Assembly (NCBI GenBank): GCA_017646765.1
Contig: JAGCMD010000071.1
Location: forward strand, 1 to 46,927
Source: Elusimicrobiaceae bacterium
Lineage (GTDB): Bacteria > Elusimicrobiota > Elusimicrobia > Elusimicrobiales > Elusimicrobiaceae
Reading direction: 5' to 3'
DNA: 46,927 bases
The notes beneath the pieces are model-generated. The model did no database searches. It was not told the origin of the DNA and worked only from the letters and a program-made list of their open reading frames with translations. A program made the translations under genes and the position numbers. Shown here piece by piece: positions 17,258 to 39,223 of this stretch (positions are counted from its first letter, which is position 1; the number at the start of each line of letters is the position of its first letter).

Positions 17258-17293
17258 AAAAATCCCCCGAAGATTTCTCTTCGGGGGATTTTT
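17258..17293 (-). terminator. Strong terminator at the end of the large-protein cluster
   Basis: A perfect 16-base-pair stem (17258-17273 against 17278-17293) with a four-base loop and T-rich ends on both strands. It is 5 bases after the stop of the 1342-residue protein and closes the long minus-strand surface region. Confidence 0.92.
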
Positions 17294-17297
17294 GAAT

Positions 17298-20200
17298 CTA
17301 TTGGTTACCTATGTTACTCTGGTTTCCGGGCTGTTTAGAATAGCCGCTACCACTTCCTATTTTCTGCCAAGTTGCGGTAGGTTTCTGACGAGTCCCATAT
17401 GTACACAAGCTCTCAATATACTTCAACACATCTGCTCGTGATATAGTTTTTCCAGAATAGTTACAAGCCTTTTTGGTAGTGAACAGATCCGCATATTCCT
17501 GATACACTTTGTTTCTGTTGGCCGTATCATCCGGGCTATTTAACTTTCCAGTGCTCGCCGGCAACAAGGTGCGACTTAAGCCTTTTAATGGCAAGTCCCT
17601 CCACTCATTGCTATTTCTAATTTGGGCTTCGTATCCTGCACGATCCCCCTTGTCAACGTAGCCACCCCAATACCAAGGTGTGCCACTCTTGAACCGCGGG
17701 TCAGGTTGTTTACGAATACCTCCCGGCAATGTCGTGTTATTGCTCGGATAGAAAGCCATATCATAGTTGATATAAGCCAAGAACGAACCAAACACGTTAT
17801 CGTACACACTCCTTTTACCAGGCGTCCAATTCGGTTCTGCCTGAGGATCTGATGAGTTCGTACCAATCGTTTTCCCTAAGATACAAACCACGTTGGCAGG
17901 AACCATTCCACTGTCCGGATCCATATTGATAACGTCCATCAAGTTGGCCACCGTCAAATCAGAACCTTTGATTTCATCGTAAAGCAACGTGGCTCCCGGG
18001 TGTGCTGCCTCAAACTTATCCTTAGCCCTTTGTACAAAAGCCATCGTTTCGGCATCTGGCTGGTGGACAAGACGTGCCTTATCCTCTGTAATCTTACAAG
18101 TACCCCACTGCGGTCTCGGTTGGGTTTTGTTAAGATTACTTGGTTCCGGCCGATTTTGCAAGTCATAAGGCTCTGTATTCACCGGAATTTTCTTGATATC
18201 TGAATGCAAGAAATATTCCAACTTACTAACGGGGACAACTTTTTCTTCAGGTTCGCATCCGGATCCAATGAAACGGACTTGGAAAATATCATCTTGACAG
18301 AATACCTCCGCTTCGCAATTGTCTTTTATAGGCAACCGCATGGGTTGAAAGTCCTTACAAGAATTTACGTAGATAACTTTTTCTTTAACGATTTCTTTTA
18401 TTTTTTCAACCTCTACGTATTCTTTCTCTTTATCCCCTTGACAATCCGGATCGTTTGTGTTTTTCACAGCATTGGCCTTATCAAAATCAAAAGTACCGTC
18501 GCTTTTCTTCTTGCAGGTTGCGATAAGCGAGCAAGTACCATCTTTGGCCTCATTACCCACAATCGTCGTTTCGCCTTCTTTACACGGATTTGGCTCTAAC
18601 ACCGGCTGAACCACCGCTCCGGACGGGTTCCATTCGCACTCCGCGGTGTCAACCACTTTGCCGCCACGAGAGAGACTCCAAACGACGTTTCCGTATTCAC
18701 CCTTTTCCGCCTTACCCTTCTTTTGGAAGGTATACGTGACACCGTCTGTAGTAGTAGCTTTGCCACTTTGCGGACGGAGCTCCTGCTGCCCGGAAGATTC
18801 CCCTTCCTTGGCAGATGAACCAAAGTTCACGGATTTACCTTGGGAGACACTCGCCCAGTAGTCGCTTGAGACTTTCTCATTCGCCTCGTTTGCAGAGGAT
18901 TTATCCACATCAATCGGCGTATACGTTACGCTAACACTAATACCGTCTTGCGCGCCCGATATGTTCTTCAGGTCTTTGCCTTTGAACCCTTTTTTATAGA
19001 GAACCGTAGCCGTGGCAACGTCGTCTTTCGCATCTTTACACGAAATAGACACTTTCGCGTCAAACGGACAATCCGGCCCGGCAATAACTTTGTCCTCGTC
19101 GCGGTATTTGCGTTTATCCACGTTCACGCGTCCTTTATATTTCTCGGACGTAGCGGTGCCTTTATGCAAGACATACGCATTATAGAAGCGGTTGTACAAC
19201 ATACCCATGAATTCGCCGCCGCGGGCGTTAATGCCGCGGCCTAATTTCTGCTTCATGGATAAAGACGACACAAACATCAAGTCCAATTGGTCAAACGCGT
19301 TACGTGCCACAGCGTCCAGCTCCTGATCGTCCGCAGAAACACCGTTTGCCTTGGCAATTTGTTTCAACTGGTCAATCATAACGCTCTGGAATTGCGCCCA
19401 GATCAATTGGTTGCTCTCCGTTATGTACACAACACAGGCGTGCTGTACATCTTCCGGCGCAATTTCATACATATCCGGGATAATTGGCAATTTTGTATTT
19501 TTATCGTTACGAGCCGAGCCAACGGTGCCCGGGTTAGCATCTTCGGTTATTGGCGTGCCATCTTCCTTATACCCTACCACTTTCCCTTTTCTTGCACCGG
19601 CGGCATCAGTCCGCGAAGTCGTCCGGGAACCTTTTTCGTTCTTCGTATAAGAGGTTTCCCCTTTCGTAAACAGATCGGCTACGTAGTCTTTGTCACCGTT
19701 AAACCGCTCAGGCAACGCGGTCTGGCTTCCGCCGGCATGCTTTTTGCTATTGATACGCGTCGGATCCGTATCATCCTGGCACAGGAGCATTCTGGAGCCT
19801 TTGAGGTTTCCTACACTCTTACCGTCTGCGCCTTTAAACAAGGCTTCCGGCACGTAGTTGCGGGCCACAATATAAACATATGTATGCCATTTTTTGGCCT
19901 GCCCTTTCGGCTCTACGAGGTAGTGCTTGTTAACCAAATTGCGGCATTCGGACTTCTCAATTAAGCCGTCCCCTTGCACTACGCCGCCTAAGCATTTGCG
20001 GCGCTGAGCAATAGGCCCAAGACGCGAGCCAGAGCCGGCACCACCTGGCACATACCCTTTACTACAATCAAGGCCATAGGGTTTCTCGACGAGTTCTTTC
20101 TGTTTCATTTTACTACAGAAACCTTTCAGGCCGCCTTCTTTTTCAATTTCTGATGGTGGGAAATAACTTGCGTCCTTTCCGCAACAGGTTTCTTTCGTGG

Positions 20201-21326
20201 GGCCGCCGCCGGAACCTAAGAAGGTATCCGGGTCTCCGTCGGAGTTACCCGTGACTAAACAGTTGAAAATACCGGCTAACTGGTTTTGCAACAAGTCGGT
20301 AGCCCAGTTCATCCATTTCCAGCCGTAGTTGAACCAAGCTTCCCATTTCATTTGGGAGCGGCGTTTCATCATATCCCACCACCACGGCTCTTTGCCGTTG
20401 TAGGTGAAATTACGCGCCAATTGGCCGGCACCACCGCCGGGCCCGCCGTAATCACCGGAGTTCAAACCGCCAATACGACCGGGTTCCACCGGTTTAAATT
20501 GCGCGTCCATCAACGCTTGCATGGCATTGGCTTTACCCATGGCTTCTTTGGATTCGCGCGCACGTTTGGCGTTTACATCTCCAAAATACGAACGCGTCGG
20601 TTTACCTGCCGCTTGCAACGGTTGCAACGATACCGGTTTGACGCTGTTTCTAACGCCGGGGCCTTTCACTTTGCTGGCGGCCGACTTCATGCTGCCGCCC
20701 CAAGGCGAAATACCATGTCCGCCGGCACCGCGGGCAACACCTTCCCGGCGAAGCGACCCAATCTTCGTCGCTGCGCGCCGGAAAGCCGCCCTTGTTTGCG
20801 GGGCTGCATCTTTGCGGTATTTATAAATGTTTGTATTGTTGACTTCTTCTTCCGTCGCATTACGCGAATAGGAAGACCCGGAGTTGTCTGACAATCCGCT
20901 GCGGTAAATATCCCCCAGCGATTCGTCTTTCTCTTCGTCTTCCCCTTTCTTTCCAAAGCCAACGATTAAATCTAACGAATCACGGCCCGCTAATTGCGCA
21001 ATTTGCCCTTCCGGGTCGCCCGTAAAATCAAAACCGGACCGATCCGGGTTGACCATTGCGTCCTCGTAACCGGGCGTGATCATAGCCGGCTCTTCCCCTA
21101 CCTGTCCACTGTATTTATACAGGAACGGTAATAAAAGAAGCGCCACCAAAGCCGCGATAAAGAACGGCGCATCCCGTTTCGTCCGCTCAAAAAGCGTTTG
21201 ACGGGGTTTGCCGTCGCTCCCGATTTTGGAGGAAATACGATTAGCAAAAGATTTGGTAGAGGTTTGTTTACCACTCTTAATCTTGTCGCTAAAGGTAAAA
21301 CTATCTTTCTTCTTTTCCTCTGACAT
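17298..21326 (-). CDS. Giant membrane-anchored, cysteine-rich protein of unknown function
   Basis: A 1342-residue protein that I do not recognise. The first 50 residues are charged and basic, then one membrane segment (about 54-70, APFFIAALVALLLLPFLY) anchors it; by the positive-inside rule the rest is outside the cytoplasm. Residues about 75-330 are low-complexity, Gly/Ser/Arg-rich, including GGHGISPWGGS. From about 340 onward there are some two dozen cysteines, many in C-rich local blocks (TCCGKD, CSKM, DCSKG), suggesting disulphide-stabilised domains, and a charged hydrophobic repeat (YVEVEKIKEIVKEKVIYV) that may form a stalk. It is the last and largest of five consecutive anchored proteins. 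Transcription starts at 21502-21529 with a long structured leader, and AGGAGG is the ribosome site. Confidence 0.6.
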   Translation of the reverse strand: MSEEKKKDSFTFSDKIKSGKQTSTKSFANRISSKIGSDGKPRQTLFERTKRDAPFFIAALVALLLLPFLYKYSGQVGEEPAMITPGYEDAMVNPDRSGFDFTGDPEGQIAQLAGRDSLDLIVGFGKKGEDEEKDESLGDIYRSGLSDNSGSSYSRNATEEEVNNTNIYKYRKDAAPQTRAAFRRAATKIGSLRREGVARGAGGHGISPWGGSMKSAASKVKGPGVRNSVKPVSLQPLQAAGKPTRSYFGDVNAKRARESKEAMGKANAMQALMDAQFKPVEPGRIGGLNSGDYGGPGGGAGQLARNFTYNGKEPWWWDMMKRRSQMKWEAWFNYGWKWMNWATDLLQNQLAGIFNCLVTGNSDGDPDTFLGSGGGPTKETCCGKDASYFPPSEIEKEGGLKGFCSKMKQKELVEKPYGLDCSKGYVPGGAGSGSRLGPIAQRRKCLGGVVQGDGLIEKSECRNLVNKHYLVEPKGQAKKWHTYVYIVARNYVPEALFKGADGKSVGNLKGSRMLLCQDDTDPTRINSKKHAGGSQTALPERFNGDKDYVADLFTKGETSYTKNEKGSRTTSRTDAAGARKGKVVGYKEDGTPITEDANPGTVGSARNDKNTKLPIIPDMYEIAPEDVQHACVVYITESNQLIWAQFQSVMIDQLKQIAKANGVSADDQELDAVARNAFDQLDLMFVSSLSMKQKLGRGINARGGEFMGMLYNRFYNAYVLHKGTATSEKYKGRVNVDKRKYRDEDKVIAGPDCPFDAKVSISCKDAKDDVATATVLYKKGFKGKDLKNISGAQDGISVSVTYTPIDVDKSSANEANEKVSSDYWASVSQGKSVNFGSSAKEGESSGQQELRPQSGKATTTDGVTYTFQKKGKAEKGEYGNVVWSLSRGGKVVDTAECEWNPSGAVVQPVLEPNPCKEGETTIVGNEAKDGTCSLIATCKKKSDGTFDFDKANAVKNTNDPDCQGDKEKEYVEVEKIKEIVKEKVIYVNSCKDFQPMRLPIKDNCEAEVFCQDDIFQVRFIGSGCEPEEKVVPVSKLEYFLHSDIKKIPVNTEPYDLQNRPEPSNLNKTQPRPQWGTCKITEDKARLVHQPDAETMAFVQRAKDKFEAAHPGATLLYDEIKGSDLTVANLMDVINMDPDSGMVPANVVCILGKTIGTNSSDPQAEPNWTPGKRSVYDNVFGSFLAYINYDMAFYPSNNTTLPGGIRKQPDPRFKSGTPWYWGGYVDKGDRAGYEAQIRNSNEWRDLPLKGLSRTLLPASTGKLNSPDDTANRNKVYQEYADLFTTKKACNYSGKTISRADVLKYIESLCTYGTRQKPTATWQKIGSGSGYSKQPGNQSNIGNQ

Positions 21327-21340
21327 AAGTGCCTCCTGTT

Positions 21341-21478
21341 AAAATAAAAACTTCGTGTTTGGGGTTTCCCCCCGAGGAAATACAAACTTACGTCCGTTTA
21401 TATCTCCCGTGTTACTGCTACGACTTCAATAATAAAAAGTTCGTTGTTCGGAGATGGACCCCCACTCCGTAACAACTT
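21341..21478 (-). promoter_or_regulatory. Structured leader RNA of the giant protein gene (two hairpin plus T-rich units)
   Basis: The transcript from the 21502-21529 promoter has a leader of about 168 bases. On the minus strand it contains two units of the same design: an outer stem, a GC-rich inner stem, then TTTTTATT. Unit 1 (21430-21478) pairs AAGTTGTT with AACgAACTT and CGGAG with CTCCG and is followed by CTTTTTATTATT. Unit 2 (21341-21387) pairs GTTT with AAAC around GGGG/CCCC and is followed by GTTTTTATTTT. They look like weak intrinsic terminators or a repeated regulatory RNA fold. Confidence 0.45.
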
Positions 21479-21501
21479 ACCCTATAACACTTCTTACTAA
21501 T

Positions 21502-21529
21502 AGTATAATAATTTTCCCCAAAATGTCAA
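21502..21529 (-). promoter_or_regulatory. Promoter of the giant protein gene
   Basis: On the minus strand TTGACA (21524-21529) is separated by 16 bases from TATACT (21502-21507). This is one of the two best promoter matches in the window. Confidence 0.8.
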
Positions 21530-21602
21530 GGGGTATTTTTAGGGCAAGTTGTTTAGTGCTTTTTATTTGTTTTCAAGCTCCTTTTTCCGTCGGGGATATG
21601 GG

Positions 21603-23486
21603 CTAATCGCCCGTTACGCCGGTGGGCACCCACACGCTTCCGCCCCAATCTATCCCCGCAAAATATCCGTTATTTAAGCGGCCTTCCTCATCATAAAAAG
21701 TGCTGTCAATATCTCCTTGTAAATCACCGGATTTAAGTTTGATGTTAGGATATTCCGGATCGTAAAATTCGTTGGATGAACTCAAGCTTTTGGCGCTTGC
21801 CACACAAGCGGCTTGCTCTTCGGGCGTTTCTTTAGAGGCGCATTTGGACAAAGCGTCGTCGCAATAGGCATCAAACGTCTGCGAGTAATTAGATAATTTT
21901 TCAGACTTGCACTGGCTATCATCCACTTTAATAGAAATAGAGTTGCACTCCCTTTTTACTTGTTCGTAGGAACGTTTCATTTGCTGGCAGCCGTTGGAAA
22001 TAGACTGTAAATTATTATCAAAAGCACCGTTACGCTCCCCGCATGTTTTAGGGAAAGACGCCGCCAGCCCGTCCACCTGGTTCAAAATCTGCGTGGTATC
22101 GGGGGCCATTTCCGCCCCGTGTTTAATAGCGTCCTTGCATTGTTTATCCAGTTCCAGGTATTTTTTGACGTTTTCCATATCTACCGCCACATCTTCCGAT
22201 TTAATCGCTACCCCGCTGGCACCGGATATAGAAATAATTTCCTTAGGCATATCCGCCCCTTCAAAACCCGCACTGGCCAATGTCTTTTTGAGCGCAGGCT
22301 GCTGGGTGCGTCGGGCCGCGCGGCTGGTTAACCAAATATAATACATATTTCGGCTAACACGGTTATCCCCCAGTTTTTTAGCATCCCCAAAATTAGTTTG
22401 TGTAGCCCCATGCGTATCCAACGCTTTACTGAGGTTATCAAAATTCACCTGCTCGCGCACGCCTCGGCGGAGCATACGGTTAAAAGAATCTTCCCCGGAA
22501 TTCCCCCCCACCGGCTTATTAGTTACTTTTTTGAGCATATTAACCGAGTTAAAAGCATCATTTTTATCCCGTTGCACGGAGGAAGAATCCTCCCCAAAAA
22601 ACACTTCGGCATTTTTAGCATTATTAGCTTGCGTGGCAGCCGCGGCGTCGTTCTTTTTGATACGAACAGCCGGCCGGTCTTTTTCTTTTTCGGAGGCTAA
22701 CGGCCCGGCGTCGTACGAGCCGGTTAAATCGTCCCCTTTCCTATCGCGGCGCGCCAAAGCGGTATTGACCGAGCGGATATTGAGAAGTTTACTTTTGGCT
22801 TGTTCTGCGGAAAAAGCAGCAACCCCGCCCGAGTTAAATACGGAAAACTCATCCCCTTCTGCCGCTAAAGCGCGTTGACGGCGGGAATCATCCTTCCACG
22901 ATAAAAGTGCCTTTAAAAAGCTCATCCGCTCCGCCTCTTCCGGCGAGTAACCCATCGCGTACATCAAATTACGTAAAAACGGAATTTTACCGGCCGGCAC
23001 CAGCGAGCCAACCCCCCATAAACAAAAAATGAGCAACATGAAAACAAACATCCGGTTAGAACGGTACCACGGACGCTTTGCCGGACGCGCGGGCGTATTT
23101 TTCGGCAAATCGCCGGATGACGAAAGGGGAGATTTTTCCAAATGAGCCTTCGTTGAATTATCCGAAACGGTTTTAGCGGGTGACGCAATCACTTTAGCCG
23201 GGAGCGGTTTTTGCGGCATTTTTGCCGGCGAAGCAGCGGCCGGTAACTCTGTCGGTTTTTGCGGGGTAGGTTGCGGGGGCTGAGGCAAAACAAGTTCTTC
23301 TATCTCGTCGGATGCCGCCGGAGCCGGAGCTGCTTGCGGGGCAACGGGCGTAGTAGCGGGTTGTGCAGGCGTTTGCGGAGCAGCGGGCGACGGATTTGCG
23401 CCGGAGGGCTGCTCATCGGGCAAATCGTCTAACCCGGGCATACGCGGCATTTGCGGATCATTCGGCGTTGAAGGTGTGTTTGCCAT
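21603..23486 (-). CDS. Proline-rich, single-pass membrane protein of unknown function
   Basis: A 627-residue protein that I do not recognise. The N-terminal 140 residues are Pro/Ala-rich and disordered (PQTPAQPATTPVAPQ and similar), as in TonB-like proteins but here on the cytoplasmic side by topology, then one membrane segment (about 145-164, MFVFMLLIFCLWGVGSL). The outer part has a disordered middle (to about 350) and a C-terminal region with eight cysteines (KQCKD, KTCGE, NGCQQ, ECNS, QCKS, YCDD, KCAS, ACVA) and a coiled appearance. It starts after the terminator at 23553-23576, with AGGT as the ribosome site. Second gene from the end of the five-gene cluster. Confidence 0.6.
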   Translation of the reverse strand: MANTPSTPNDPQMPRMPGLDDLPDEQPSGANPSPAAPQTPAQPATTPVAPQAAPAPAASDEIEELVLPQPPQPTPQKPTELPAAASPAKMPQKPLPAKVIASPAKTVSDNSTKAHLEKSPLSSSGDLPKNTPARPAKRPWYRSNRMFVFMLLIFCLWGVGSLVPAGKIPFLRNLMYAMGYSPEEAERMSFLKALLSWKDDSRRQRALAAEGDEFSVFNSGGVAAFSAEQAKSKLLNIRSVNTALARRDRKGDDLTGSYDAGPLASEKEKDRPAVRIKKNDAAAATQANNAKNAEVFFGEDSSSVQRDKNDAFNSVNMLKKVTNKPVGGNSGEDSFNRMLRRGVREQVNFDNLSKALDTHGATQTNFGDAKKLGDNRVSRNMYYIWLTSRAARRTQQPALKKTLASAGFEGADMPKEIISISGASGVAIKSEDVAVDMENVKKYLELDKQCKDAIKHGAEMAPDTTQILNQVDGLAASFPKTCGERNGAFDNNLQSISNGCQQMKRSYEQVKRECNSISIKVDDSQCKSEKLSNYSQTFDAYCDDALSKCASKETPEEQAACVASAKSLSSSNEFYDPEYPNIKLKSGDLQGDIDSTFYDEEGRLNNGYFAGIDWGGSVWVPTGVTGD

Positions 23487-23552
23487 ATTATTTACCTGTA
23501 AACAAAATTTAGTCAGGCTGCTCCCCGACTGTCTTATTATTTAAACAAAAGA

Positions 23553-23576
23553 GGGAGAAGGCAAACGCCTTCTCCC
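23553..23576 (-). terminator. Rho-independent terminator inside the five-gene cluster
   Basis: A perfect 10-base-pair stem (GGGAGAAGGC with GCCTTCTCCC) and a four-base loop, followed on the minus strand by TCTTTTGTTT. It lies 15 bases after the stop of the 541-residue protein, so it should reduce transcription into the next gene and set the ratio of the products. Confidence 0.8.
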
Positions 23577-23591
23577 GTGTGTAAAAACAAC

Positions 23592-25217
23592 TTAAGCTCT
23601 GTTACCACCGTTTTTACCGCCTTTACCACCGTTACTTCCACCCTCGCCCTTAACACCCGCTTCTTTGGCAAGCCGCGCGGCTTTCTCCTGAGCATTGGCA
23701 TCTCCCCACTCCGAAGCTTTAACAAGTAAGTTTGCTCCTTCCGCTGCAGACGCCTTGGCAGCTCCTTTAAGGATCTTACCAAACTTCGCCAGGCCCGCTT
23801 GGGCTTTTTGGCTGCCTTTTTCCACCGCTTCTTTAGCAGCTTTAGAGGTTTCCGAAGACTTGCCGGCATTTGCAGTGGCATAAGTTATCCAGCCGCTAGC
23901 AGCCGACACCGCACCGATACCTAACAGCGTAAATGAGAACCAGTTCCACTCTCCGGGTGAGTACCTACCCCAATAAACGCCAACTGCCACCATAAACGCA
24001 GTCCATATTGCACTGATTACACCCGCAAGAGCCAAACATCCCGCCGTACCAATCAATCCGAACACAGGGACCTTCTCTTCGGCCATAGCCGCCGTAATCA
24101 TGCCGCACAGTGCTATAGTAATCGGCAACAACATGGACATTATCTTTTTTAACCAACCCGCATATTTCAACCGGGCTTCGTCTTCGTTGGCAGTATCATC
24201 CAATTTTTTGTTAATCCGTTGGGCACGGGCTTTCATGTCACTGGGAGAAGCAAAGTCAGAAGAAGAGGCAGCCCCCCCTTCCGTTCCCGCATCCGCGGCA
24301 ATACCCATACCGCCCGAAACTTGGTTAGATGCCAAAAACACGTCCGACATTTCGTTAGAAGCGTTAGTAGCAGTGCGTTCGGCAAGCGTAGTGGAATGTT
24401 CGGCTAATTCTTTGAGTTTTTTGCCTTTTAACCCTTGCGTCTCGCTACCGGCACCCACGCGCATCGCCTGATTATTAAATTTAGAAGCTTTACCGCTGGA
24501 CGCCGCGTCTTTTAAAGCGACCATATTGCTGCCACCGTCCATGCGGCCAGAAAGCGTGTGTCTTTCCCCATTAGAGGCTTTGGCGGAAAAACCGCCTACG
24601 CCGCTACGTCCGCCAAACGGGCTCATAGAAACGCCGCCGGACGCTGTAGCCCGGGAAGTTTTAGAGAGACTGTTGACAGCCCCGCCGTTGCTACCGCCGT
24701 AACTGCCGCGGGCAGCGCCTCTGCCGTCTTTTCCGGCGCGGGAACCGCCGCCGTAAGCGCCATCAGCCCCGTAGGAGTCTCCCCCCCCGTAGCCATAGCC
24801 GGAGCCGCCGTTGGCGGGATTAATTTCTTCGGCGCGGTTAGAACTGCTGCCAAAACCTTCAAAGGCTCCCGACATACTGTTGGCTATGGAATTCTCATCC
24901 ACGTCCGAGAACGTCGGCGCGTCATCTGCCGCCATTTTAGATAAATTCGTTTCTACCTGGTTGTAACCGTTACCCAAGTTGGCTATATGCATAGCAGAAA
25001 GCCCTTCTTTGGTTTGGCGCATACCGGCATTGGCAGTCGGAGCGCCCTGTTGGGCAAAAACGTTCGTGCGGATAGCGTTGATTTTTTGAACTTCTTGAGT
25101 CGTCGCCATGCTGCCAACATAATAAAGCGCCACTGCACCCACTCCGATAACGGCCAGTTGCTGGGCACCTAAAGCCAGTTTACCTGACTTGCTTTTTAAG
25201 AGATGAAATATGTTCAT
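23592..25217 (-). CDS. Membrane protein of unknown function, paralogue A of the cluster
   Basis: A 541-residue protein. It begins MNIFHLLKSKSGKLAL, then a first membrane segment (about 14-36). A long extracytoplasmic low-complexity stretch rich in Gly, Ser and Tyr follows (about 130-220, for example GYGYGGGDSYGADGAYGGG). The C-terminal third has three hydrophobic segments (about 358-378, 384-416 and 427-447) and ends in an Ala/Lys/Gly tail. It is homologous to the 25554-27053 product: both have the same N-terminus, an EGFGxxSNxAxE segment and a VFLxxxQxSGGxxIA segment. No known family was recognised. Confidence 0.6.
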   Translation of the reverse strand: MNIFHLLKSKSGKLALGAQQLAVIGVGAVALYYVGSMATTQEVQKINAIRTNVFAQQGAPTANAGMRQTKEGLSAMHIANLGNGYNQVETNLSKMAADDAPTFSDVDENSIANSMSGAFEGFGSSSNRAEEINPANGGSGYGYGGGDSYGADGAYGGGSRAGKDGRGAARGSYGGSNGGAVNSLSKTSRATASGGVSMSPFGGRSGVGGFSAKASNGERHTLSGRMDGGSNMVALKDAASSGKASKFNNQAMRVGAGSETQGLKGKKLKELAEHSTTLAERTATNASNEMSDVFLASNQVSGGMGIAADAGTEGGAASSSDFASPSDMKARAQRINKKLDDTANEDEARLKYAGWLKKIMSMLLPITIALCGMITAAMAEEKVPVFGLIGTAGCLALAGVISAIWTAFMVAVGVYWGRYSPGEWNWFSFTLLGIGAVSAASGWITYATANAGKSSETSKAAKEAVEKGSQKAQAGLAKFGKILKGAAKASAAEGANLLVKASEWGDANAQEKAARLAKEAGVKGEGGSNGGKGGKNGGNRA

Positions 25218-25228
25218 ACATTTCTCCT

Positions 25229-25522
25229 TTATTTTTTAACTCCGTCTATGGCGTTTTGGACGTTATTACGGCTACGTCGTTGCTGCTGTTGCTGCAAAAA
25301 CCGCTGTTGATACGCCGCTTGCCGACGTTCCTGCTCCAGCCGACGTTGCTGCTGCGCTTTTTGCTGAGCCGCTTGTTCCGCTATAAGCCGGGATGTTTTT
25401 TGAGCATGAAGGACTCCCCAGCCGATAACTGCTAACCAGCACACCCCTATGATAATAGCTATCACACGCGGGATGAAATTTTTTTTACTCCAAGGCAAAA
25501 TAATAAATCTTCCAATTTTCAT
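25229..25522 (-). CDS. Small membrane protein with Gln/Arg-rich coiled coil
   Basis: A 97-residue protein with one membrane segment (about 18-37, VIAIIIGVCWLAVIGWGVLH) and a C-terminal half made of Gln, Arg and Ala heptads (LIAEQAAQQKAQQQRRLEQERRQ is the core) that should form a helix or coiled coil. It lies between the two paralogous genes, 11 bases before paralogue A, and is likely a small partner of them. No known family was recognised. Confidence 0.6.
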   Translation of the reverse strand: MKIGRFIILPWSKKNFIPRVIAIIIGVCWLAVIGWGVLHAQKTSRLIAEQAAQQKAQQQRRLEQERRQAAYQQRFLQQQQQRRSRNNVQNAIDGVKK

Positions 25523-25553
25523 ACGTATATTCTCTCTGTAATATCAGACGCAG

Positions 25554-27053
25554 TTAATTCCCTTCTGAATTTTCCTGCGCCGCTTGCTCCGCCTCGTATT
25601 GTTCTTTGGCTTCTTTACTCGCTCTGTCTTTCTCTTCTTCGGCAGCCGCTTTTACTTCACTTTCGTTGATATATATACCTAACCCTGTCAGGATGAGTGG
25701 GAATAACGAACTCACAACTCCGGCCCCAGCAGCTGCCGGTATTAAGGCCGCCAATACGCCTGCTTCCAAAGCCCCAGCCATGGCGGCTCCCCCCGTGGCC
25801 AAACCTTCCCACCCCCATTTGCTTCCGAACTGGGCCGCTTTTGTCGCTAACCCGATATTGGCAGCTGCGGCAGCAGCTTCCAAGATTCCTATAGCAATCC
25901 AAATCCAGGGAACCATTTCAAAACAGGAAAGAATAAGAATAGCACACATAGACACTAAAGAAACTATCATAGCAGCTGTGGCCCATTTCACTACTTTTTC
26001 AGCATCTTCTTCACGTTGTTTGGCCGTATCAACAAAGTCTCCTATGGCTTCTTCAATCTGCTGCGGGATTAAGGACGTATCCGTAGAAGACAAATCAGAC
26101 GAGCCGGAACTTTGCCCGGTGGTTACGTTCTCCCCGGCAATTAAAAGCCCGCCGGAAAGTTGGTCCCCCCCTAAAAATACGTTCGCTTCTTCGTTAGCGG
26201 CCCCGTCATGTTCGGCAATCTTTTTAGATTTGGCGGCCAATAATTCCAACCCTTTGAGACCTATTTTATTATTCTCGGCATCTTGCGAGCGGGCAAACTT
26301 GTTGTTCCCTAACAATCCCCCGACCTGGCCGCTTAAACGGCGGCCTTCGCGCGAAGAACCGTCTTTGCGAAGATTATTCCCGGCGGAGGCAAAATCCCCG
26401 CTGGACATATTGACATCCGCACCGCCGGCTTTTGTAGAACCGCCGCCTAAACTGGCTTTGGCCAGTTCCGCCAGCCCGCCGCTGGCCCGGCTGGCCGCAC
26501 GGCCCCTGCCCGCCGAGGTTTCGGCTACTTGCGAATTAACCGCATCTTTAATGTTGGCAAGATCGGACAGGCCCCCTAAAGCCGCCAAGGGATTATTTTC
26601 AGATTCTTGTTCGTTGGCGGCATTGGACGCGTTACCAAAACCTTCCGTAGCACCAAAGGCGTACGCTTTTTCCGCGTCCTCTTGGGCTTTTTGTTCTTCG
26701 TAGAGGATGCGGTCCGCTTGGTCGCGCGCGGCTTGCCGTTGGTTGATCTTTTGCATACTGCCGCCTGCCAAACGGTAAGAGCCACCTTTACCGTCGGCAC
26801 CGGCACCGTAGTTAATAGGGGTGCCGTAGTTACCGCCGGCATAATTGCCACCATTGGCCCCGGCCACATAAACCACATTGCCGGAGTTAGACGGGTTGTT
26901 GAGGTTAAAGGCGGTTGCATCGTCCGACGGGGCACTTAAATATTGCCACGCGCCGACGGCCGCTACTCCCACCACAGCGGCCAACCCGGCCGCTTGTAAA
27001 CCGGAAAGCGCCATCTTTCCGCTGCGTTCTATTAATTTCTTTAAGATATTCAT
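25554..27053 (-). CDS. Membrane protein of unknown function, paralogue B of the cluster
   Basis: A 499-residue paralogue of the 23592-25217 product. The N-terminus is MNILKKLIERSGKMAL with a membrane segment at about 15-37. A Gly/Asn/Tyr-rich stretch (about 60-95) precedes a helical region. The signatures GATEGFGNASNAANEQE (about 133-149) and VFLGGDQLSGGLLIA (about 292-306) align with GAFEGFGSSSNRAEE and VFLASNQVSGGMGIA in paralogue A. The C-terminal part has hydrophobic segments at about 356-377, 380-402 and 425-462, then a charged tail. The second gene of the unit that starts at 28737, 19 bases after the first. Confidence 0.6.
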   Translation of the reverse strand: MNILKKLIERSGKMALSGLQAAGLAAVVGVAAVGAWQYLSAPSDDATAFNLNNPSNSGNVVYVAGANGGNYAGGNYGTPINYGAGADGKGGSYRLAGGSMQKINQRQAARDQADRILYEEQKAQEDAEKAYAFGATEGFGNASNAANEQESENNPLAALGGLSDLANIKDAVNSQVAETSAGRGRAASRASGGLAELAKASLGGGSTKAGGADVNMSSGDFASAGNNLRKDGSSREGRRLSGQVGGLLGNNKFARSQDAENNKIGLKGLELLAAKSKKIAEHDGAANEEANVFLGGDQLSGGLLIAGENVTTGQSSGSSDLSSTDTSLIPQQIEEAIGDFVDTAKQREEDAEKVVKWATAAMIVSLVSMCAILILSCFEMVPWIWIAIGILEAAAAAANIGLATKAAQFGSKWGWEGLATGGAAMAGALEAGVLAALIPAAAGAGVVSSLFPLILTGLGIYINESEVKAAAEEEKDRASKEAKEQYEAEQAAQENSEGN

Positions 27054-27072
27054 AAGCTATCTCCTTGTTAAC

Positions 27073-28737
27073 TCAGTCAAAAAGTTCGTGATACTTGTTA
27101 TAAGGTATTGTGACATCGCGACCATTCTTATCTTGTACGATGTAATCCGTACCGTCAAAGCGCACGTTACTTGTGTCAAAATCACTAGCGTTAAAATTAC
27201 TGGAATTACTGGTATAACTATAATTATCCATACCATAACTATTGCTATTATAATAGTTCTGATGATTGCTGACTTGACCTACATTGGCGTTAAAATTTTC
27301 CGAATGCATACTGTACCAGTCGTTGGCACTTTTCCAAGCTGTTCTATCGTTTTTTCTAAAGGCTTTGTCAAGCTCTGCCGCGGATAGATTGGAAGAAGCT
27401 TTTGCGGGAGTGTTCGCAACGGTTGAAAAATCCGGCGTGATGGACTTTGAGTTGGCTCCATCGTTAGACATCCCCACATTTAAGCTTTTCGTTACCATTT
27501 CGTCCGTCCGGCTGCCCATGGATGCAATTTCCGAATTGTTCGTGGGCGTCCAATCGGGATTGTATTTTTTTTGTAATAATTCGTTGGCAGATACACCATT
27601 CGCGTTCCGCCAATCTATGCCCGCCGCATCCAAATATTTGGCCTCTGGACTTCCCGCCTCCAGCTTACTCGCATCAGGCACGTTGTTTATTAAATTACTA
27701 ACCGTCGCCTCACCCGCAGCTTTGGCCTCTTGGTTGGCCGCCATTCTGGCTTTTGCGTCCGCCATCATCAGGTCAACGCTTTGGTTGGCAATGTTGGTCA
27801 CCAAGTTTAACCCCAGGTTAATTAAGCCGCTGTAAAGCTGCTTTAAAAGTTGGTCTTTTAAAGTTTCTTTATCTTTATCGTCTTTCTTTTTAGCGTCGTT
27901 AGCCGCGTCGGATATTTTATCGGACAAGTCACTCAAATCGCCCGAAGAAGACGGGGCGTTGGTATCTAAATTCAAGCCGCTGGCTTTGTCCAAATCAATA
28001 CCGTTATCGGTAAACGCGTCTTGGCCGGCAATATCGGCAGCCCACATAGCTTTTTTCGCGTTGGCCAGTTTGCCTTCTTTCAACCCGGCCGCCGCACGGC
28101 TGCCGGACCGTATTTGTTTAAGAGCTTTGCGCGCACTTTTATCTTTGGCTTGCCCCGGCATTGGGACTTCTTTGCCTTTGCTTTGGCTTCTGTACGGAGA
28201 GAAATCCCCCCGCGGAGCACCCCAACTGCCCCCTATACCGCTGCCGCTGGCACGCCCCATACTGGCCGAACCTAGCGAGCCGACTTGCGTAGAAGCACCG
28301 CTCCCCCCGCGGCTGCGCCCGCCATAGCTGCGCCGCCCGGAAGAACCCGAGTAAGAGGAGTTATCGTAAGAACTATACGATTCTTCTTGCACTTCTTCGG
28401 TTTGTTCTTCTTCCGCTGCCGCTTCGGCATCTTCTGCCTGGCGTTCTTCTTTTTCTTCGGCGGAATACAACACCGTGGCCCCGTTGTTTTGCATATCCGG
28501 ATATTTGGAAGCCAACAGATATTGCTCGGCTTCGTCACTTACGAACGGCATTTGCGCCAAATCGTAACCGCGAGCGTTTAAATTATCAAAAGACTCATCA
28601 TCCGCTTGCCCCATAAAAGAAGCCAACGAGATAAGTGCAATCAGACAAACAATCACAATGGCGCCCAATGTATACGCCTGTTTGCGATTCATTTTGTTCA
28701 TCTTCTCAAACACATTTCCAGGTTTTAGCTTGAACAT
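27073..28737 (-). CDS. Single-pass membrane protein with Ser/Gly-rich linker, unknown function
   Basis: A 554-residue protein, first of the five. The basic start (MFKLKPGNVFEKMNKMNRKQ) precedes one membrane segment (about 20-43). The outer part has an acidic Glu-rich helix (about 93-118), a Tyr/Ser/Gly/Arg-rich linker (about 120-175), then helical and Asn/Ser-rich regions, ending in YIVQDKNGRDVTIPYNKYHE. There are no cysteines outside the membrane segment, unlike two of its partners. The segment GSWGAPRGDFSPY followed by a Lys/Ala-rich helix resembles the linker-helix layout at the same place in the giant protein. The ribosome site is AGGGGA. No known family was recognised. Confidence 0.6.
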   Translation of the reverse strand: MFKLKPGNVFEKMNKMNRKQAYTLGAIVIVCLIALISLASFMGQADDESFDNLNARGYDLAQMPFVSDEAEQYLLASKYPDMQNNGATVLYSAEEKEERQAEDAEAAAEEEQTEEVQEESYSSYDNSSYSGSSGRRSYGGRSRGGSGASTQVGSLGSASMGRASGSGIGGSWGAPRGDFSPYRSQSKGKEVPMPGQAKDKSARKALKQIRSGSRAAAGLKEGKLANAKKAMWAADIAGQDAFTDNGIDLDKASGLNLDTNAPSSSGDLSDLSDKISDAANDAKKKDDKDKETLKDQLLKQLYSGLINLGLNLVTNIANQSVDLMMADAKARMAANQEAKAAGEATVSNLINNVPDASKLEAGSPEAKYLDAAGIDWRNANGVSANELLQKKYNPDWTPTNNSEIASMGSRTDEMVTKSLNVGMSNDGANSKSITPDFSTVANTPAKASSNLSAAELDKAFRKNDRTAWKSANDWYSMHSENFNANVGQVSNHQNYYNSNSYGMDNYSYTSNSSNFNASDFDTSNVRFDGTDYIVQDKNGRDVTIPYNKYHELFD

Positions 28738-28831: not shown

Positions 28832-28860
28832 AGTATAAGTAAAAAACCCGATTTTGTCAA
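28832..28860 (-). promoter_or_regulatory. Promoter of the five-gene cluster
   Basis: On the minus strand TTGACA (28855-28860) is separated by 17 bases from TATACT (28832-28837). It lies downstream of the TadE-like gene and separates the cluster from the Tad genes. Confidence 0.82.
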
Positions 28861-28896: not shown

Positions 28897-29436
28897 CTAT
28901 TCGGGCAAGATGTACGGCATGACACGTTCGTTTTTACCTATGTATTTGATAACTTCTATTTGGCCGCCGGTTTCGCACAAGAAGGCATACCCTTTTAAGC
29001 ATTTGGCATCCCGGTAGCAAACTTGGTCCTTATCGTAATTGCACAAAAAACGTATCCGCGGCGGTTTGGTTTGCGCGGTCAGCGTAACGACCGTCCACGT
29101 ACCGGAGCGGTCAATACTCATTTTTAATTTATTAAGACTCAAAAATTTACGGGCGCCCGGGTTATCAAACCCTAAATAGTTCTCCACTTTTTTTTGGATA
29201 TCCTGCTCCAAAAAACGTTTATCCCAGGTGTCGCGGTAGAACGGCGTTTCGTGCGACTGCAGCTGAAAACGGCGCGCCGCGTAGGTGCCGGCAATCTGCA
29301 TTTTTTGGCTCAGCACCACCAGGCCGAAAATTTTAATAACAAACAAAATGAAAATAACAAAAAATGGAAACAGCAACACTACCTCGGTAGTAGCTTGCCC
29401 GCGACGCGAAGAAAGAAAGCCAAAGCGTTTAATCAT
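28897..29436 (-). CDS. TadE-like pseudopilin, copy 2
   Basis: A 179-residue protein with the TadE-type N-terminus: a short basic leader ending in RRGQATTEVVLLFPFFVIF, where cleavage after Gly and Glu at +5 are expected, then a hydrophobic helix to about residue 40. The outer part has four cysteines (FLCNYD, QVCYRD, KCLKG, LCETGG) and mixed structure. TadE-like subunits are minor pilins processed by the Tad prepilin peptidase and placed at the pilus base or tip. It starts directly after the stop of the TadG-like gene (TAAATG). Confidence 0.78.
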   Translation of the reverse strand: MIKRFGFLSSRRGQATTEVVLLFPFFVIFILFVIKIFGLVVLSQKMQIAGTYAARRFQLQSHETPFYRDTWDKRFLEQDIQKKVENYLGFDNPGARKFLSLNKLKMSIDRSGTWTVVTLTAQTKPPRIRFLCNYDKDQVCYRDAKCLKGYAFLCETGGQIEVIKYIGKNERVMPYILPE

Positions 29437-30594
29437 TTAGGGCTCCAATGTAATACTGTACTTAGGTATCGGGTCCGGCCATATACAGTTGTTCCCGTTG
29501 TGCGGACAAGACAGCACCATCCTGTTGCGTACATAGGGTTTGTATTTCTGTTCCAGGTGAATGTTAAAACGGTTTTGGGGCAACGTAATGCTTTGTTTAA
29601 GCAGCACCCCGCGCGAAAGCATCCTAAGTTTATTGCGCGTTTCCGGCGGCAAATACGCAAACTGAAACATCTTTTTATTCATGAGTTCTTCCATAGAGAA
29701 ATCATGATGATACGATCGCGCGTGGAATTGTTCACCGGGGACGCCCTCCACACCTTCCGTAGCATAAATACGGATGTTTGCTATTCTAAACGGCTTGGTA
29801 GCCCAATTTAAAAACGGAGCAATCTGCGCTGCACTTTGGCGGGCACATTCGTCCCGCTTGCAACCGTCCGGCGAGTTTAAAAAGTAAGCTTCGCGAAAGA
29901 AACGCGCATTTTTGACGGAATCTTTATAGGCATAGTCCTGGCTGTCATAAATATCACCCAAGTAGCCATAGGTCGCTATATAATTTGAAAGGGCTCCCAC
30001 CGTCGGGCTTTCCTTATTAACCAAAGAGAAAAATACCATATCCGTAAGCTGTTTACTCATAATCGGGATAATATCTTTATCGCCCGGCTCTTTAGGGTCT
30101 TCCTTCATCCAGTCGGTACGGTCCCCGCTGGGCTCAACGGAATTTCCGATTCCGTCCACTTCATCACCGGTGTAATACTTAAGCCCCCAACTGGTTGCCT
30201 CCGGCGCCGGACGCGGGCTCAGACCCGTTTCATAATCGGGGCCGATAGCCGGGAAAGCACCTCCCTTATAAAACAAGTCAAAAATAGTAATTTTCTCCCC
30301 GGACGCGTTGCTGGGAACGGGCGTGAGCGGGTAGTCGGCATAATCATACATATTACGATGCGCCAATCCTCCGTTTACATAGGCAACTGCGTTTAAATAG
30401 GTACTGGCAGAAGACATTTGCGCGTAAGCGGAAGCATCTAACGCAAATTGGTGACGCACTTTGTACATGGATACTTTGGCTGTTTCAAACAGCAGATAAA
30501 TTACCAATATAAAAATAGGCGCCAAAAGCACCGCAGGCAGCAAAATTTGTGCCCTGCGCTCTTGCAATTTATGCCTAATCCGTTCCTGTAACAT
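29437..30594 (-). CDS. TadG-like pilus-associated protein
   Basis: A 385-residue protein with an N-terminal basic stretch (MLQERIRHKLQERRAQ) and one hydrophobic helix (about 17-38, ILLPAVLLAPIFILVIYLLF), then FALDASAYAQMSSASTYLNA, which follows the TadG/TadF style of a helix after the membrane segment. The rest is an extracytoplasmic domain with cysteines in CKRDEC and SCPHNGNNC. ATG 30594 is preferred because a longer frame would overlap the pilin gene upstream, and because AGGGCG precedes it. The TadG name is by position and N-terminal form; the outer domain is not recognised. Confidence 0.65.
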   Translation of the reverse strand: MLQERIRHKLQERRAQILLPAVLLAPIFILVIYLLFETAKVSMYKVRHQFALDASAYAQMSSASTYLNAVAYVNGGLAHRNMYDYADYPLTPVPSNASGEKITIFDLFYKGGAFPAIGPDYETGLSPRPAPEATSWGLKYYTGDEVDGIGNSVEPSGDRTDWMKEDPKEPGDKDIIPIMSKQLTDMVFFSLVNKESPTVGALSNYIATYGYLGDIYDSQDYAYKDSVKNARFFREAYFLNSPDGCKRDECARQSAAQIAPFLNWATKPFRIANIRIYATEGVEGVPGEQFHARSYHHDFSMEELMNKKMFQFAYLPPETRNKLRMLSRGVLLKQSITLPQNRFNIHLEQKYKPYVRNRMVLSCPHNGNNCIWPDPIPKYSITLEP

Positions 30595-30599
30595 ACGCC

Positions 30600-30779
30600 C
30601 TAGGTAGTGATTATCATCCCTATAAAAGTGAATAAATAACGCACAATATGCGTGTGAAACGCCGTCAAAAAGGCCGACAAGACCACCAATATCGTAGCTA
30701 ACATCAACACATACTCTATGGTGGCCTGCCCCTTTTTGCAACTAAGCAAACGCGCTTTGTACGTCTTTAATTGCCGCAA
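30600..30779 (-). CDS. Flp-type pilin, third copy, TTG start
   Basis: A 59-residue protein found by translating the gap between the response regulator and the TadG-like gene. It contains the Flp prepilin signature CKKGQATIEYVLML (residues about 14-27), with cleavage after Gly17 and Glu22-Tyr23 at +5/+6, then one hydrophobic helix and a short polar end. The start is TTG at 30779, supported by GAGGAG about 6 bases upstream, 3 bases after the response-regulator stop. The stop TAG (30600-30602) overlaps the ribosome site of the TadG-like gene. It is similar to the pilins at 45255-45476 and 45502-45684 and is most likely a minor pilin. Confidence 0.8.
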   Translation of the reverse strand: MRQLKTYKARLLSCKKGQATIEYVLMLATILVVLSAFLTAFHTHIVRYLFTFIGMIITT

Positions 30780-34581: not shown

Positions 34582-35526
34582 TTAGCAGCTACCGGACGGG
34601 GCGGCCGGCACACCTGACGGAGCGGACGGATTAAAAAATTCAAAGCCTTTTAAACGGGCGGCTCCATCCAACCCCATTTGCACTTTTCCTTCCCATATAA
34701 CGGACGGAGAAGCACTAATGCCAAATTCTTTAGCATATTTAGCTTCTTCTTTTAGCAACTCAACCCCTTCGGTGTCAAATTTCTTCGTGATTTTTTTAAC
34801 ACTGATACCGGCATCTTCCATGGCTTTATCCCAACGGCTGGACCGATAATCCTTGTTGCGAATCTCTAAGTACTTCCAAAATTTATTCGGGTAGTATTTG
34901 GCAATTAAGAGTTGGCGGATGTTTTCTTCCCACTCGCCGGAACCGTGCAAACTGTTGAAACCTCTTTCGGGCGAATAATCCACAATATAGCGGATGCGGA
35001 CCGTTTTGTCGGCCGGGAAGGTGCCTTCTTTTTTGGCCTTAATAATAAAATCCTCCGCACGCACGCCATAAGGGCATTGAGACATTACAAATAAATCTAA
35101 CACATCCGGCTGCGGCTCTTTATTGTTAAAAACACCTTGGCGGGTTTGATGCGGCAAAATGAGAAATTCATCATTTTCTTGCACATACCCATATTGAATA
35201 GGTTGAGCCATTTTTTCACGGAATGTTTTATTTTTTTTGATTAGATAAAGCGGCAAAAAGCTATAATCTAAGTTAGCCAATTTAGGATTAGCCGCTACGT
35301 CCTTAACGGATACGCGGGTAACTGACGGGGTGGCTTCTAAAAATTCGCTAATGCCCTGGGTCAAGGCCGGGTCTTCTTTTCCGGCTTCATACTCATCTGA
35401 TTCAATGATGATAAACTCAGCCTTCGTTTTGGCTTTGGCTTTGGCCGGAGCTTTTTTGGCCGCCTCAGCCGCCACGACACTTCCGGCTAACAGAAGGGCC
35501 AACATCCCTACAACAATTCTCTTCAT
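34582..35526 (-). CDS. Secreted DsbA-like thioredoxin-fold protein with a single-cysteine CPYG motif
   Basis: A 314-residue protein with a signal peptide (about 1-22) and a Lys/Ala-rich linker. Residues about 142-290 look like a DsbA-type thioredoxin fold: DLFVMSQCPYGVRAED places Cys151 at the active-site position, and SASPSVIWEG near 272-281 gives the cis-proline loop. The second cysteine of the usual CxxC is Gly154, so it may act as a monothiol, isomerase-like or binding protein and not as a two-cysteine oxidase. One other Cys is the final residue of the chain (GSC). It is the last gene of the Tad operon and could serve the cysteine-rich proteins encoded downstream. Confidence 0.7.
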   Translation of the reverse strand: MKRIVVGMLALLLAGSVVAAEAAKKAPAKAKAKTKAEFIIIESDEYEAGKEDPALTQGISEFLEATPSVTRVSVKDVAANPKLANLDYSFLPLYLIKKNKTFREKMAQPIQYGYVQENDEFLILPHQTRQGVFNNKEPQPDVLDLFVMSQCPYGVRAEDFIIKAKKEGTFPADKTVRIRYIVDYSPERGFNSLHGSGEWEENIRQLLIAKYYPNKFWKYLEIRNKDYRSSRWDKAMEDAGISVKKITKKFDTEGVELLKEEAKYAKEFGISASPSVIWEGKVQMGLDGAARLKGFEFFNPSAPSGVPAAPSGSC

Positions 35527-38329: not shown

Positions 38330-39220
38330 TTAAAATCCCATACCGCCATTGACAAGACCCATAATCATTGGCGCTAAAATTAAAATAAAAATCGTCGGGA
38401 AAATGAACATAAAAAGCGGAAACAACATTTTAGTAGAGGCTTGCGCGGCTAACTTTTCCGCCCGGCTTAAACGGCGGGAACGAAGGTCCGTAGAAAAGTT
38501 CCGTAACAAGTCTACCAAACTTGTACCGAGTTCGTCTGACTGAATAATAAGCCCTACGAGCGAGCGGACTTCCTGCACCCCTGTACGGGAAGAAAATCGC
38601 TCCAATGCTTCACGGCGGGAATAACCCAGCTTAATCTCGTTAATGGTCTTTTCAAGTTCTTCTTCCAAAATCGTTTTTTCTTTAGCAATTTTAATAATAC
38701 GTTCAAAAGCGGTTAAATAGTCCAAACCGGACTCAATAATAAGCGCTGCCAAATCTACCGTTGTAGAGAAATTGCCCAAAATTTCCGCCTGGCGTTTTTG
38801 AATTTTACTTTTAAGTAACATATCAGGCAAGTAGAAACAAACCGGCACTAAAAATACCGGCCAAACACTGCCAAACAGCAGCATTATTGCCACCGGGATT
38901 AACAAAGCACACCAAATTTTACTGTACAAAATATCTACCGGTTGCGGGGTATCAGGGCTGCCCAACTGCATATGTATTTCTTCCAAGGTCTCTTCTACAT
39001 GGAAGTTACGCAAACAGAAAAATGCCAACCTGTCTATAAATTTTTCTTCCGGCTGCAAACGGGCAAAACTAGACGTGGATTTAAACCGCTTTACCGCCAC
39101 ATCCACTACGTCCGCTTTCTTTTCCTTAGGCGCCAGCAAGCCAAACACGGTAGCAAATACACAAAATGTACCGATAGCCAGTATTATCTTAAGTCCTACA
39201 ACAAATGCCAAGCTATTCAT
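38330..39220 (-). CDS. tadC: TadC-type inner-membrane platform protein
   Basis: A 296-residue inner-membrane protein with a GspF domain. Membrane segments lie at about 7-29, 102-136 and 266-290, and the cytoplasmic domain (about 137-262) has the pattern FSTTVDLAALIIESGLDYLTAFERI with SRREALERFSSRTGV and SDELGTSLVDLLRNFS that is typical of Tad platform proteins. It pairs with TadB and the ATPase to drive pilin movement. The gene starts 3 bases after TadB. Confidence 0.88.
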   Translation of the reverse strand: MNSLAFVVGLKIILAIGTFCVFATVFGLLAPKEKKADVVDVAVKRFKSTSSFARLQPEEKFIDRLAFFCLRNFHVEETLEEIHMQLGSPDTPQPVDILYSKIWCALLIPVAIMLLFGSVWPVFLVPVCFYLPDMLLKSKIQKRQAEILGNFSTTVDLAALIIESGLDYLTAFERIIKIAKEKTILEEELEKTINEIKLGYSRREALERFSSRTGVQEVRSLVGLIIQSDELGTSLVDLLRNFSTDLRSRRLSRAEKLAAQASTKMLFPLFMFIFPTIFILILAPMIMGLVNGGMGF

Positions 39221-39223
39221 AAA

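What the first reader, a model, noticed from the sequence alone, without database searches (positions are those of the whole stretch)
17298..28737. Five large membrane-anchored proteins of no recognised family form a candidate undescribed envelope system
Five consecutive genes (554, 499, 97, 541 and 627 residues, then 1342) - six counting the small one - all encode proteins with an N-terminal membrane anchor followed by Gly/Ser-rich or Pro-rich linkers and extracytoplasmic domains. I recognise no known family in any. They lie directly behind a Tad locus with pilins and a phosphorelay, share promoter type and leader design, and end in a strong terminator. The plan (anchor, flexible linker, outer domain) suggests a multi-protein structure built across the envelope.
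Basis: partly seen in the sequence, partly recalled or inferred. Interest (0 to 1): 0.75.

Follow-up and report, generated by a model that had tools for sequence, protein, structure and literature searches.

The report
Unknown Tad-linked envelope gene cluster
Six neighbouring genes of a gut bacterium encode membrane-anchored proteins unlike any catalogued family, and the same set travels with an adhesion-pilus locus across a large part of the bacterial class Elusimicrobia, so they are probably an undescribed part of that pilus machine.

Summary
None has a Pfam, NCBIfam, PHROG or PDB relative worth the name. They form a conserved cluster in a Ca. Avelusimicrobium-type gut genus (Elusimicrobiaceae): TadG-TadE2-554-499-(97)-541-627-1342 is intact in 31 of the 54 genus loci read; most of the rest are cut by contig ends. 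The largest protein's N-terminal half defines a family found in seven families of the class. In a distant family (f7; TadZ-TadA about 53% identical) the genes still follow TadG-TadE2; in the sister family they have moved away, except one anchored protein that stays behind TadE2. No cluster-bearing genome was shown to lack Tad (three MAGs undecided). Tad-less families of the class lack the cluster.

Best reading: an inner-membrane-anchored periplasmic scaffold and surface extension of an unusual Tad machine whose secretin is only 247 residues with no detectable N-domains. Coupling to Tad is well supported; the mechanism is inference. New variant of a known kind.

The parts
27073..28737 (-). 554-aa protein: short cytoplasmic tail, one transmembrane helix (24-42), conserved 'RGYDLAQMPF..DEAEqYLLASKYPDM' stretch, Gly/Ser linker, shared region, variable C-terminus
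   Evidence: found in 73 of 295 phylum genomes, all of one family
28003..28290 (-). region of 554 (about residues 150-245) shared with 1342: 'TQ(V/I)GxL.SasM..asGsG' followed by a short Ala-rich stretch
   Evidence: hhalign 554 against 1342 families 86%, E 4.9e-6, reversed control 0.15%; shuffle test p=2.6e-18; 554 profile hits 1342-family proteins down to E 4e-7
25554..27053 (-). 499-aa protein: N-terminal membrane segment, long disordered Gly/Ala/Ser loop, C-terminal transmembrane helix bundle
   Evidence: AlphaFold2 model
25683..26072 (-). C-terminal helical, largely transmembrane bundle of the 499-aa protein (residues 328-457), the main confidently modelled domain
   Evidence: 10-residue block means of pLDDT 88-98 over about residues 331-440; no PDB fold match at E<=0.001
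25229..25522 (-). 97-aa protein: one transmembrane helix and a Gln/Arg-rich tail; position varies between or after the two paralogues in relatives
23592..25217 (-). 541-aa protein, tandem paralogue of the 499-aa protein with the same topology
   Evidence: hhalign 100%, E 5.6e-70 over 432 columns; every member of each family hits the other profile
21603..23486 (-). 627-aa protein: Pro-rich N-terminal tail, one transmembrane helix (146-164), C-terminal domain with conserved cysteines (450, 482, 500, 514, 526, 542)
17298..21326 (-). 1342-aa protein: conserved basic cytoplasmic tail, one transmembrane helix (52-70), conserved N-terminal half, beta-rich Cys-containing C-terminal half
20952..21026 (-). 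signature just outside the membrane of the 1342 protein ('GQIAQLAGRDSLDLIVG'; elsewhere in the class 'VITPLxxRDPxSLIxG')
   Evidence: alignment A6 across families: Arg115 invariant, Asp116 and its successor nearly invariant
20517..20774 (-). region of 1342 (about residues 185-270) homologous to the shared region of 554
28832..28860 (-). promoter-like site before 554 (TTGACA-17-TATACT)
   Evidence: 11 of 12 matches
21502..21529 (-). promoter-like site before 1342 (TTGACA-16-TATACT)
   Evidence: 11 of 12 matches
23553..23576 (-). terminator-like hairpin between 541 and 627
   Evidence: 10 pairs, 7 of them G-C
17258..17293 (-). strong terminator-like hairpin after 1342
   Evidence: 16 pairs
28897..29436 (-). 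TadE-like pseudopilin (TadE2), the gene directly before the cluster
   Evidence: Pfam TadE E 0.004, below the curated cut-off; orthologue in the same place in f2 and f7
29437..30741 (-). TadG-like pseudopilin; the ORF's listed start is probably too far upstream
   Evidence: orthologues before TadE2 throughout
34582..35526 (-). exported thioredoxin-like (DsbA/DsbC-type) protein in the Tad locus, possible oxidase/isomerase for the Cys-rich proteins
   Evidence: Pfam DSBA E 0.004, below cut-off; conserved in f1, f2 and G128 loci
38330..40858 (-). TadC and TadB inner-membrane platform
   Evidence: T2SSF in TadC, Pfam E 1.2e-15; TadB by position and by sequence conservation across loci
40865..43204 (-). 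fused TadZ-TadA ATPase
   Evidence: Pfam CbiA at 15-231 and T2SSE at 384-664; matches in all 101 relatives, weak in a few
43210..43953 (-). unusually short secretin (CpaC/RcpA), 247 aa, secretin domain only
   Evidence: Pfam Secretin at 86-247, nothing else at E 0.01; homologues of 246-277 aa in f7 and G128

Best explanation
The six genes encode a lineage-specific envelope module of a Tad (Flp) pilus apparatus. Proposed mechanism: 499, 541 and 97 sit in the inner membrane around the TadB/TadC platform. 554, 627 and 1342 are single-pass proteins whose flexible Gly/Ser-rich stretches cross the periplasm. Together they form a scaffold linking the platform to the outer-membrane secretin, which in this lineage is only about 250 residues and has no detectable N-domains. 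The Cys-rich outer parts of 627 and 1342, probably matured by the thioredoxin-like protein of the locus, form the distal part: a gate collar, a surface base or an adhesive structure. Shown: gene order, conservation, class-wide distribution, synteny with Tad, paralogy of 499/541, shared region of 554 and 1342, short secretin, conserved cysteines. Inferred: location, contacts, scaffold role, disulphides.
For: (1) Synteny: TadG-TadE2-554-(499/541 x2)-627-1342 in 31 loci of the genus; the same order in sister genus g12; in family f7, G220 and G248 carry the Tad locus, then TadG(-TadE2), an FtsH-like protease, a 342/554-like gene, several 499-like genes and the 1342-like gene on one strand. In all 7 f7 genomes where TadZ-TadA and the 1342-like gene share a contig, the latter lies 22-40 kb downstream on the same strand (positions), among them a 3.8-Mb single-contig genome. 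(2) Phylogenetic profile: all 35 cluster-positive genomes of f7, f8, f12-f14 have the TadZ-TadA gene; f3, f4 and f9 lack TadZ-TadA and the cluster. (3) In f2, where the rest of the cluster has moved, one anchored protein stays beside TadE2. (4) Short secretin throughout the loci checked. (5) Conserved cysteines in 627 and 1342 and a thioredoxin-like gene in the locus. (6) Membrane topology of all six.
Against: In f2 and G128 (probably E. minutum) most of the cluster lies away from Tad. Fused TadZ-TadA occurs without it in f5, f10, f11 and other classes, so Tad does not need it. Tad is nearly universal in these families, so co-occurrence alone is weak. No physical contact was tested; models have low overall confidence (pTM 0.40-0.43) and no PDB fold match at E<=0.001. 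The 627-like gene in f7 is assigned by position and Cys-rich character only.
Confidence: 0.5

Rival explanations
1. A self-standing envelope machine (for example a surface organelle or secretion device) of Elusimicrobia that neighbours Tad by shared regulation, not by shared structure.
For: In f2 the collinear set [f2A-like]-342-511-494-508-1290 lies apart from Tad, near dnaX/recR in G065 and dnaX in G061. In G128 it is dispersed. It has promoter-like and terminator-like sites of its own. It contains multi-pass proteins of its own.
Against: Adjacency to TadG/TadE2 in two distantly related families; the single anchored protein left beside TadE2 in f2; no ATPase or other energy source of its own in the window cluster; no genome shown with the cluster and without Tad.
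Confidence: 0.25
2. Tad surface adhesins and minor filament subunits: the proteins are cargo or tip components carried out by the Tad pilus rather than scaffold.
For: They follow the pseudopilins TadG and TadE2; large beta-rich Cys-containing ectodomain in 1342 with Ig-like sandwich regions; fast-evolving C-termini in 554 and 1342.
Against: No TadE/TadF/TadG or Flp-like domain. Membrane segments begin at 52 (1342) and 146 (627), far from a prepilin leader. 499/541 are polytopic. The best-conserved part of 1342 is its cytoplasmic tail and juxtamembrane region, not the distal end.
Confidence: 0.15
3. A generic cell-surface coat or sensory cluster without any machine-like assembly.
For: Low-complexity, partly disordered sequences; histidine kinases and response regulators in the same locus.
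Against: Gene order kept over family-level divergence; strongly conserved juxtamembrane motifs.
Confidence: 0.1

Closest known systems
Tad (tight adherence / Flp pilus) apparatus
   Same: The locus has fused TadZ-TadA, TadB, TadC, secretin, CpaB, TadE-like pseudopilins, an Flp-like pilin and TPR proteins; the cluster is syntenic with it in two families.
   Different: Described Tad loci do not, to my knowledge, contain these five large anchored proteins; the secretin is reduced to its C-terminal domain. Tad in Elusimicrobia has been reported (PMC6668835), without mention of such a module in the passages read.
PilMNOP alignment complex of type IVa pili / GspC-GspL-GspM of type II secretion
   Same: Proposed job: inner-membrane-anchored periplasmic proteins that link platform and secretin.
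   Different: No detectable sequence similarity over any cut-off; far longer disordered linkers; polytopic members. Analogy only.
Giant ORFs and Tad of Omnitrophota (Velamenicoccia), PMC10066038
   Same: Poorly annotated large membrane/surface proteins in genomes with Tad, proposed to serve attachment to other cells.
   Different: Those ORFs exceed 20 kb and are described there as poorly conserved; the proteins here are smaller, conserved and in fixed order. (f2 loci do hold giant ORFs near Tad.)

Membership tests
Tad apparatus (host locus) | TadA-type ATPase with TadB/TadC platform | tested here: met
   T2SSE and CbiA in one protein, T2SSF in TadC; TadB by position and conservation
Tad apparatus (host locus) | outer-membrane secretin RcpA/CpaC | tested here: met
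   Secretin domain at 86-247 of a 247-aa protein; no N-domain match
Tad apparatus (host locus) | Flp pilin and TadE-type pseudopilins | tested here: met
   TadE E 1e-10; TadE2 E 0.004; Flp1_like E 0.0027, below cut-off
Known Tad components (TadE/F/G, TadD, RcpB) as identity of the cluster proteins | Pfam/NCBIfam domain of such a component | tested here: not met
Tad pseudopilins | short leader, processing site, then N-terminal hydrophobic helix | tested here: not met
   1342 and 627 helices begin at 52 and 146; 499/541 are polytopic; 554 was not excluded by helix position alone
PilN/PilO/PilP or GspL/GspM/GspC | sequence domains of these families | tested here: not met
   no match over a cut-off; GspM-type match of the 97-aa protein at E 0.015, 15 bits against a cut-off of 60
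Tad-coupled module | occurs only with Tad | tested here: inconclusive
   no counter-example among determinable genomes; G025, G084, G270 undecided
Tad-coupled module | physical association with the Tad machine | not testable with these tools
   no complex prediction or experiment available

The most novel reading that the evidence does not exclude
An undescribed multi-protein trans-envelope machine of class Elusimicrobia, built from at least four protein families without known relatives (554-like, 499/541-like, 627-like, 1342-like), with its own function, of which Tad is only a partner.
Probability: 0.25. Interest if true: 0.78.

Novelty: new variant of a known kind. Interest (0 to 1): 0.6.

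Why it matters
Elusimicrobia are common in animal guts, groundwater and soils, have almost no cultured members and lack flagella (PMC11257099), so how they attach and meet other cells is open. A set of uncatalogued envelope proteins kept in order beside a Tad locus over family-level divergence gives named, testable parts for that question. A Tad machine with a secretin reduced to its C-terminal domain would show a different way to bridge two membranes.

Tried and rejected
Phage origin of 499: no match in the phage records; only the 97-aa protein has low-scoring Rz-spanin-like PHROG matches, best explained by TM-plus-coil composition. Riboswitch control: no Rfam match in the window. Pilin identity: rejected for 627, 1342, 499 and 541 on helix position and domains. 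NF-kB-like best PDB matches for 1342 (E 1.2e-3, TM about 0.09 of the query): read as generic Ig-like beta-sandwiches, not homology; matches of 499 are generic helical bundles. A module common to all five proteins: my first impression by eye; supported only for 554-1342, suggestive for 499/541 (E 7e-6 over 17 columns, but 0.0013 with wider alignments; shuffle p about 2e-3 to 5e-3), not supported for 627, and weak for the f2 protein f2A (shuffle p 6e-4 with nine sequences, hhalign about 1%). f2A as orthologue of 554: same place and plan, but not shown by profile. The idea that E. minutum-type dispersal means no link to Tad: rejected because of f7 synteny.
Full report
WHERE IT IS. The window is contig C80 of a 1.35-Mb, 95-contig genome. 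Named relatives found with the 554 family are gut Elusimicrobia from ruminants, horse and chicken, among them Candidatus Avelusimicrobium excrementipullorum, family Elusimicrobiaceae in the NCBI taxonomy.

OBSERVATION. The six ORFs exist with the stated lengths. Hydrophobic segments are at 24-42 (554), 15-33 (499), 20-38 (97), 14-32 (541), 146-164 (627) and 52-70 (1342); 499 and 541 have two more hydrophobic stretches in their C-terminal part. The promoter-like sites before 554 and 1342 are near-consensus and share both hexamers; terminator-like hairpins follow 541 and 1342 (consensus matches, not proof). Gaps are 19, 31 and 11 nt within 554-499-97-541, then 105 and 276 nt, so 554-499-97-541 is probably one unit, 1342 another, and 627 uncertain.

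NO KNOWN FAMILY. Pfam and NCBIfam give nothing over a cut-off for any of the six. The f2 counterparts 342, 511, 508 and 1290 have no Pfam match either. PHROGs: only Rz-spanin-like coiled coil for the 97-aa protein. PDB by sequence profile: nothing at E below 0.4. Models: 1342 residues 160-1342 with mean pLDDT 68, pTM 0.43, helices in the first third, beta-rich later; 499 with pLDDT 62, pTM 0.40, a confident helical bundle around residues 331-440. PDB fold searches: nothing at E<=0.001.

WHAT IS RELATED TO WHAT. 499 and 541 are tandem paralogues (hhalign 100%, E 5.6e-70 over 432 columns; all members of each family cross-hit). 554 and 1342 share a collinear stretch from the membrane segment through a 'TQ(V/I)GxL..G' motif: hhalign 86%, E 4.9e-6 over 240 columns, against 0.15% for reversed columns; a profile of this region made from other genera scores the 1342 family above shuffles (p=2.6e-18, sequences not independent); the 554 profile hits 1342 proteins in whole-genome searches (best E 4e-7). 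For 499/541 the same similarity is suggestive; for 627 unsupported.

DISTRIBUTION. Within the genus, 31 of 54 loci read show TadG-TadE2-554-M-M-627-1342 (M = 499/541 type, small protein between or after them); most others are cut by contig ends. G029 has Tad and the cluster far apart on its contig, and in G060 the cluster precedes TadZ-TadA. In sister genera of the family the set is TadG-TadE2-554a-554b-499-small-627-1342 (g12), partly so in g14; in G128 554-499-like and 1342-like genes lie apart from each other and from Tad. In family f2 a collinear set [f2A-like]-342-511-494-508-1290 recurs (G061, G063, G065, G067, G070, G082, G062), away from Tad. The search with the f2 1290-aa protein found relatives in 90 of 196 class genomes, 32 of 61 genera, and a class-wide alignment of the N-terminal part (A6) found 110 of 234 phylum genomes, all in families f1, f2, f7 and f8 of that sample, with f12-f14 added; none in f3-f6 or f9-f11, and none outside the class among the rows listed (104 genomes without a match are not shown by name).

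LINK TO TAD. In f7 genomes G220 and G248 the Tad genes run into TadG(-TadE2), an FtsH-like M41 protease, a 342/554-like gene, several 499-like genes and the 1342-like gene on one strand. In seven f7 genomes (G162, G182, G208, G220, G240, G248, G298) TadZ-TadA and the 1342-like gene share a contig, always same strand, the latter 22-40 kb downstream; in the window the distance is 19.5 kb. f7's TadZ-TadA is about 53% identical to the window's, so this order is either very old or repeatedly regained; the former is simpler. In f2, one anchored protein (f2A) is still next to TadE2, or to TadE2 plus the protease, while the rest has moved. Co-occurrence: a TadZ-TadA match in 101 of 101 relatives, though weak in some; in the rest of the family 21 of 22 strong (which includes one f12 genome); in f7, f8 and f12-f14 35 of 35 cluster-positive genomes, some as fragments. 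G090 and G093, weak, have TadG/TadE2 beside f2A. G025 (72% complete), G084 and G270 remain undecided. Families f3, f4 and f9 have neither; f5, f10, f11 and some other classes have a fused TadZ-TadA without the cluster. The dependency is therefore one-way: cluster implies Tad, not the reverse. Shared ancestry inflates the counts.

HOW IT MOST LIKELY WORKS. Shown: inner-membrane anchoring potential, long flexible stretches, conserved cysteines in 627 and 1342, a conserved basic cytoplasmic tail and a juxtamembrane 'RDPxSLI' signature in the 1342 family, a secretin of 246-277 residues in the loci checked, with only the secretin domain in the window protein, and a thioredoxin-like exported protein in the locus. 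Inferred: since secretin N-domains normally reach down into the periplasm and meet the inner-membrane parts (general knowledge of secretin machines), a machine without them needs other connectors, and anchored proteins with long linkers encoded next to it are the obvious candidates. I put 0.5 on this, 0.25 on a self-standing machine, 0.15 on cargo/adhesin, 0.1 on a non-assembled coat or sensor.

NOVELTY. The protein families are uncatalogued in the libraries searched, and I found no paper describing them (searches; the library lacks most subscription journals, including possibly the E. minutum genome paper). Because the set is tied to Tad, I file it as a new variant of a known kind, not categorically new.

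LIMITS. ORF calls outside the window are mechanical (longest ORFs, greedy overlap removal) and sometimes pick wrong frames in GC-rich genomes. Counts come from samples 'drawn evenly' by the tool. Most genomes are MAGs. 627 orthology in f7 rests on position and Cys-rich character.

Noticed in passing
window 16493-17029, repeats 16379-16446 and 17112-17179: An ORF6N-domain gene sits between 1342 and the TPR gene, flanked by 68-nt direct repeats (93% identical); relatives read have 1342 and the TPR gene next to each other, so it looks like an insertion.
   Followed up: partly
L060:1-12129 and L062:878-19999: Giant ORFs (over 4000 and over 6300 residues, both running off the stretch read) near the Tad locus of sister-family genomes G061 and G070.
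   Followed up: no
L216:1-4806, L220:15534-19901, L233:2-4447: In f7/f8 the cluster is followed by one or two large signal-peptide proteins; the largest carries a Walker-A-like stretch (L233 protein: ResIII-type match E 1e-5), odd for an exported protein.
   Followed up: partly
L061:14745-16547, L237:13264-14973, L235:18381-19901: An FtsH-like AAA/M41 membrane protease directly behind TadE2 (or TadG) in f2 and f7 Tad loci, absent there in the window.
   Followed up: partly
L059:2200-3333, L061:18238-19353: A PDZ plus peptidase S41 protein follows the anchored f2A protein in f2 Tad loci.
   Followed up: no
window 45687-46670: A PorV/UPF0164-like outer-membrane protein heads the Tad locus and is conserved there in f7 and G128, although PorV is known from type IX secretion.
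   Followed up: no
G256:C41:81330, 129295 and 135348: Some f8 genomes carry three or more 1342-like genes, two of them about 6 kb apart, so the module may exist in several versions per cell.
   Followed up: no
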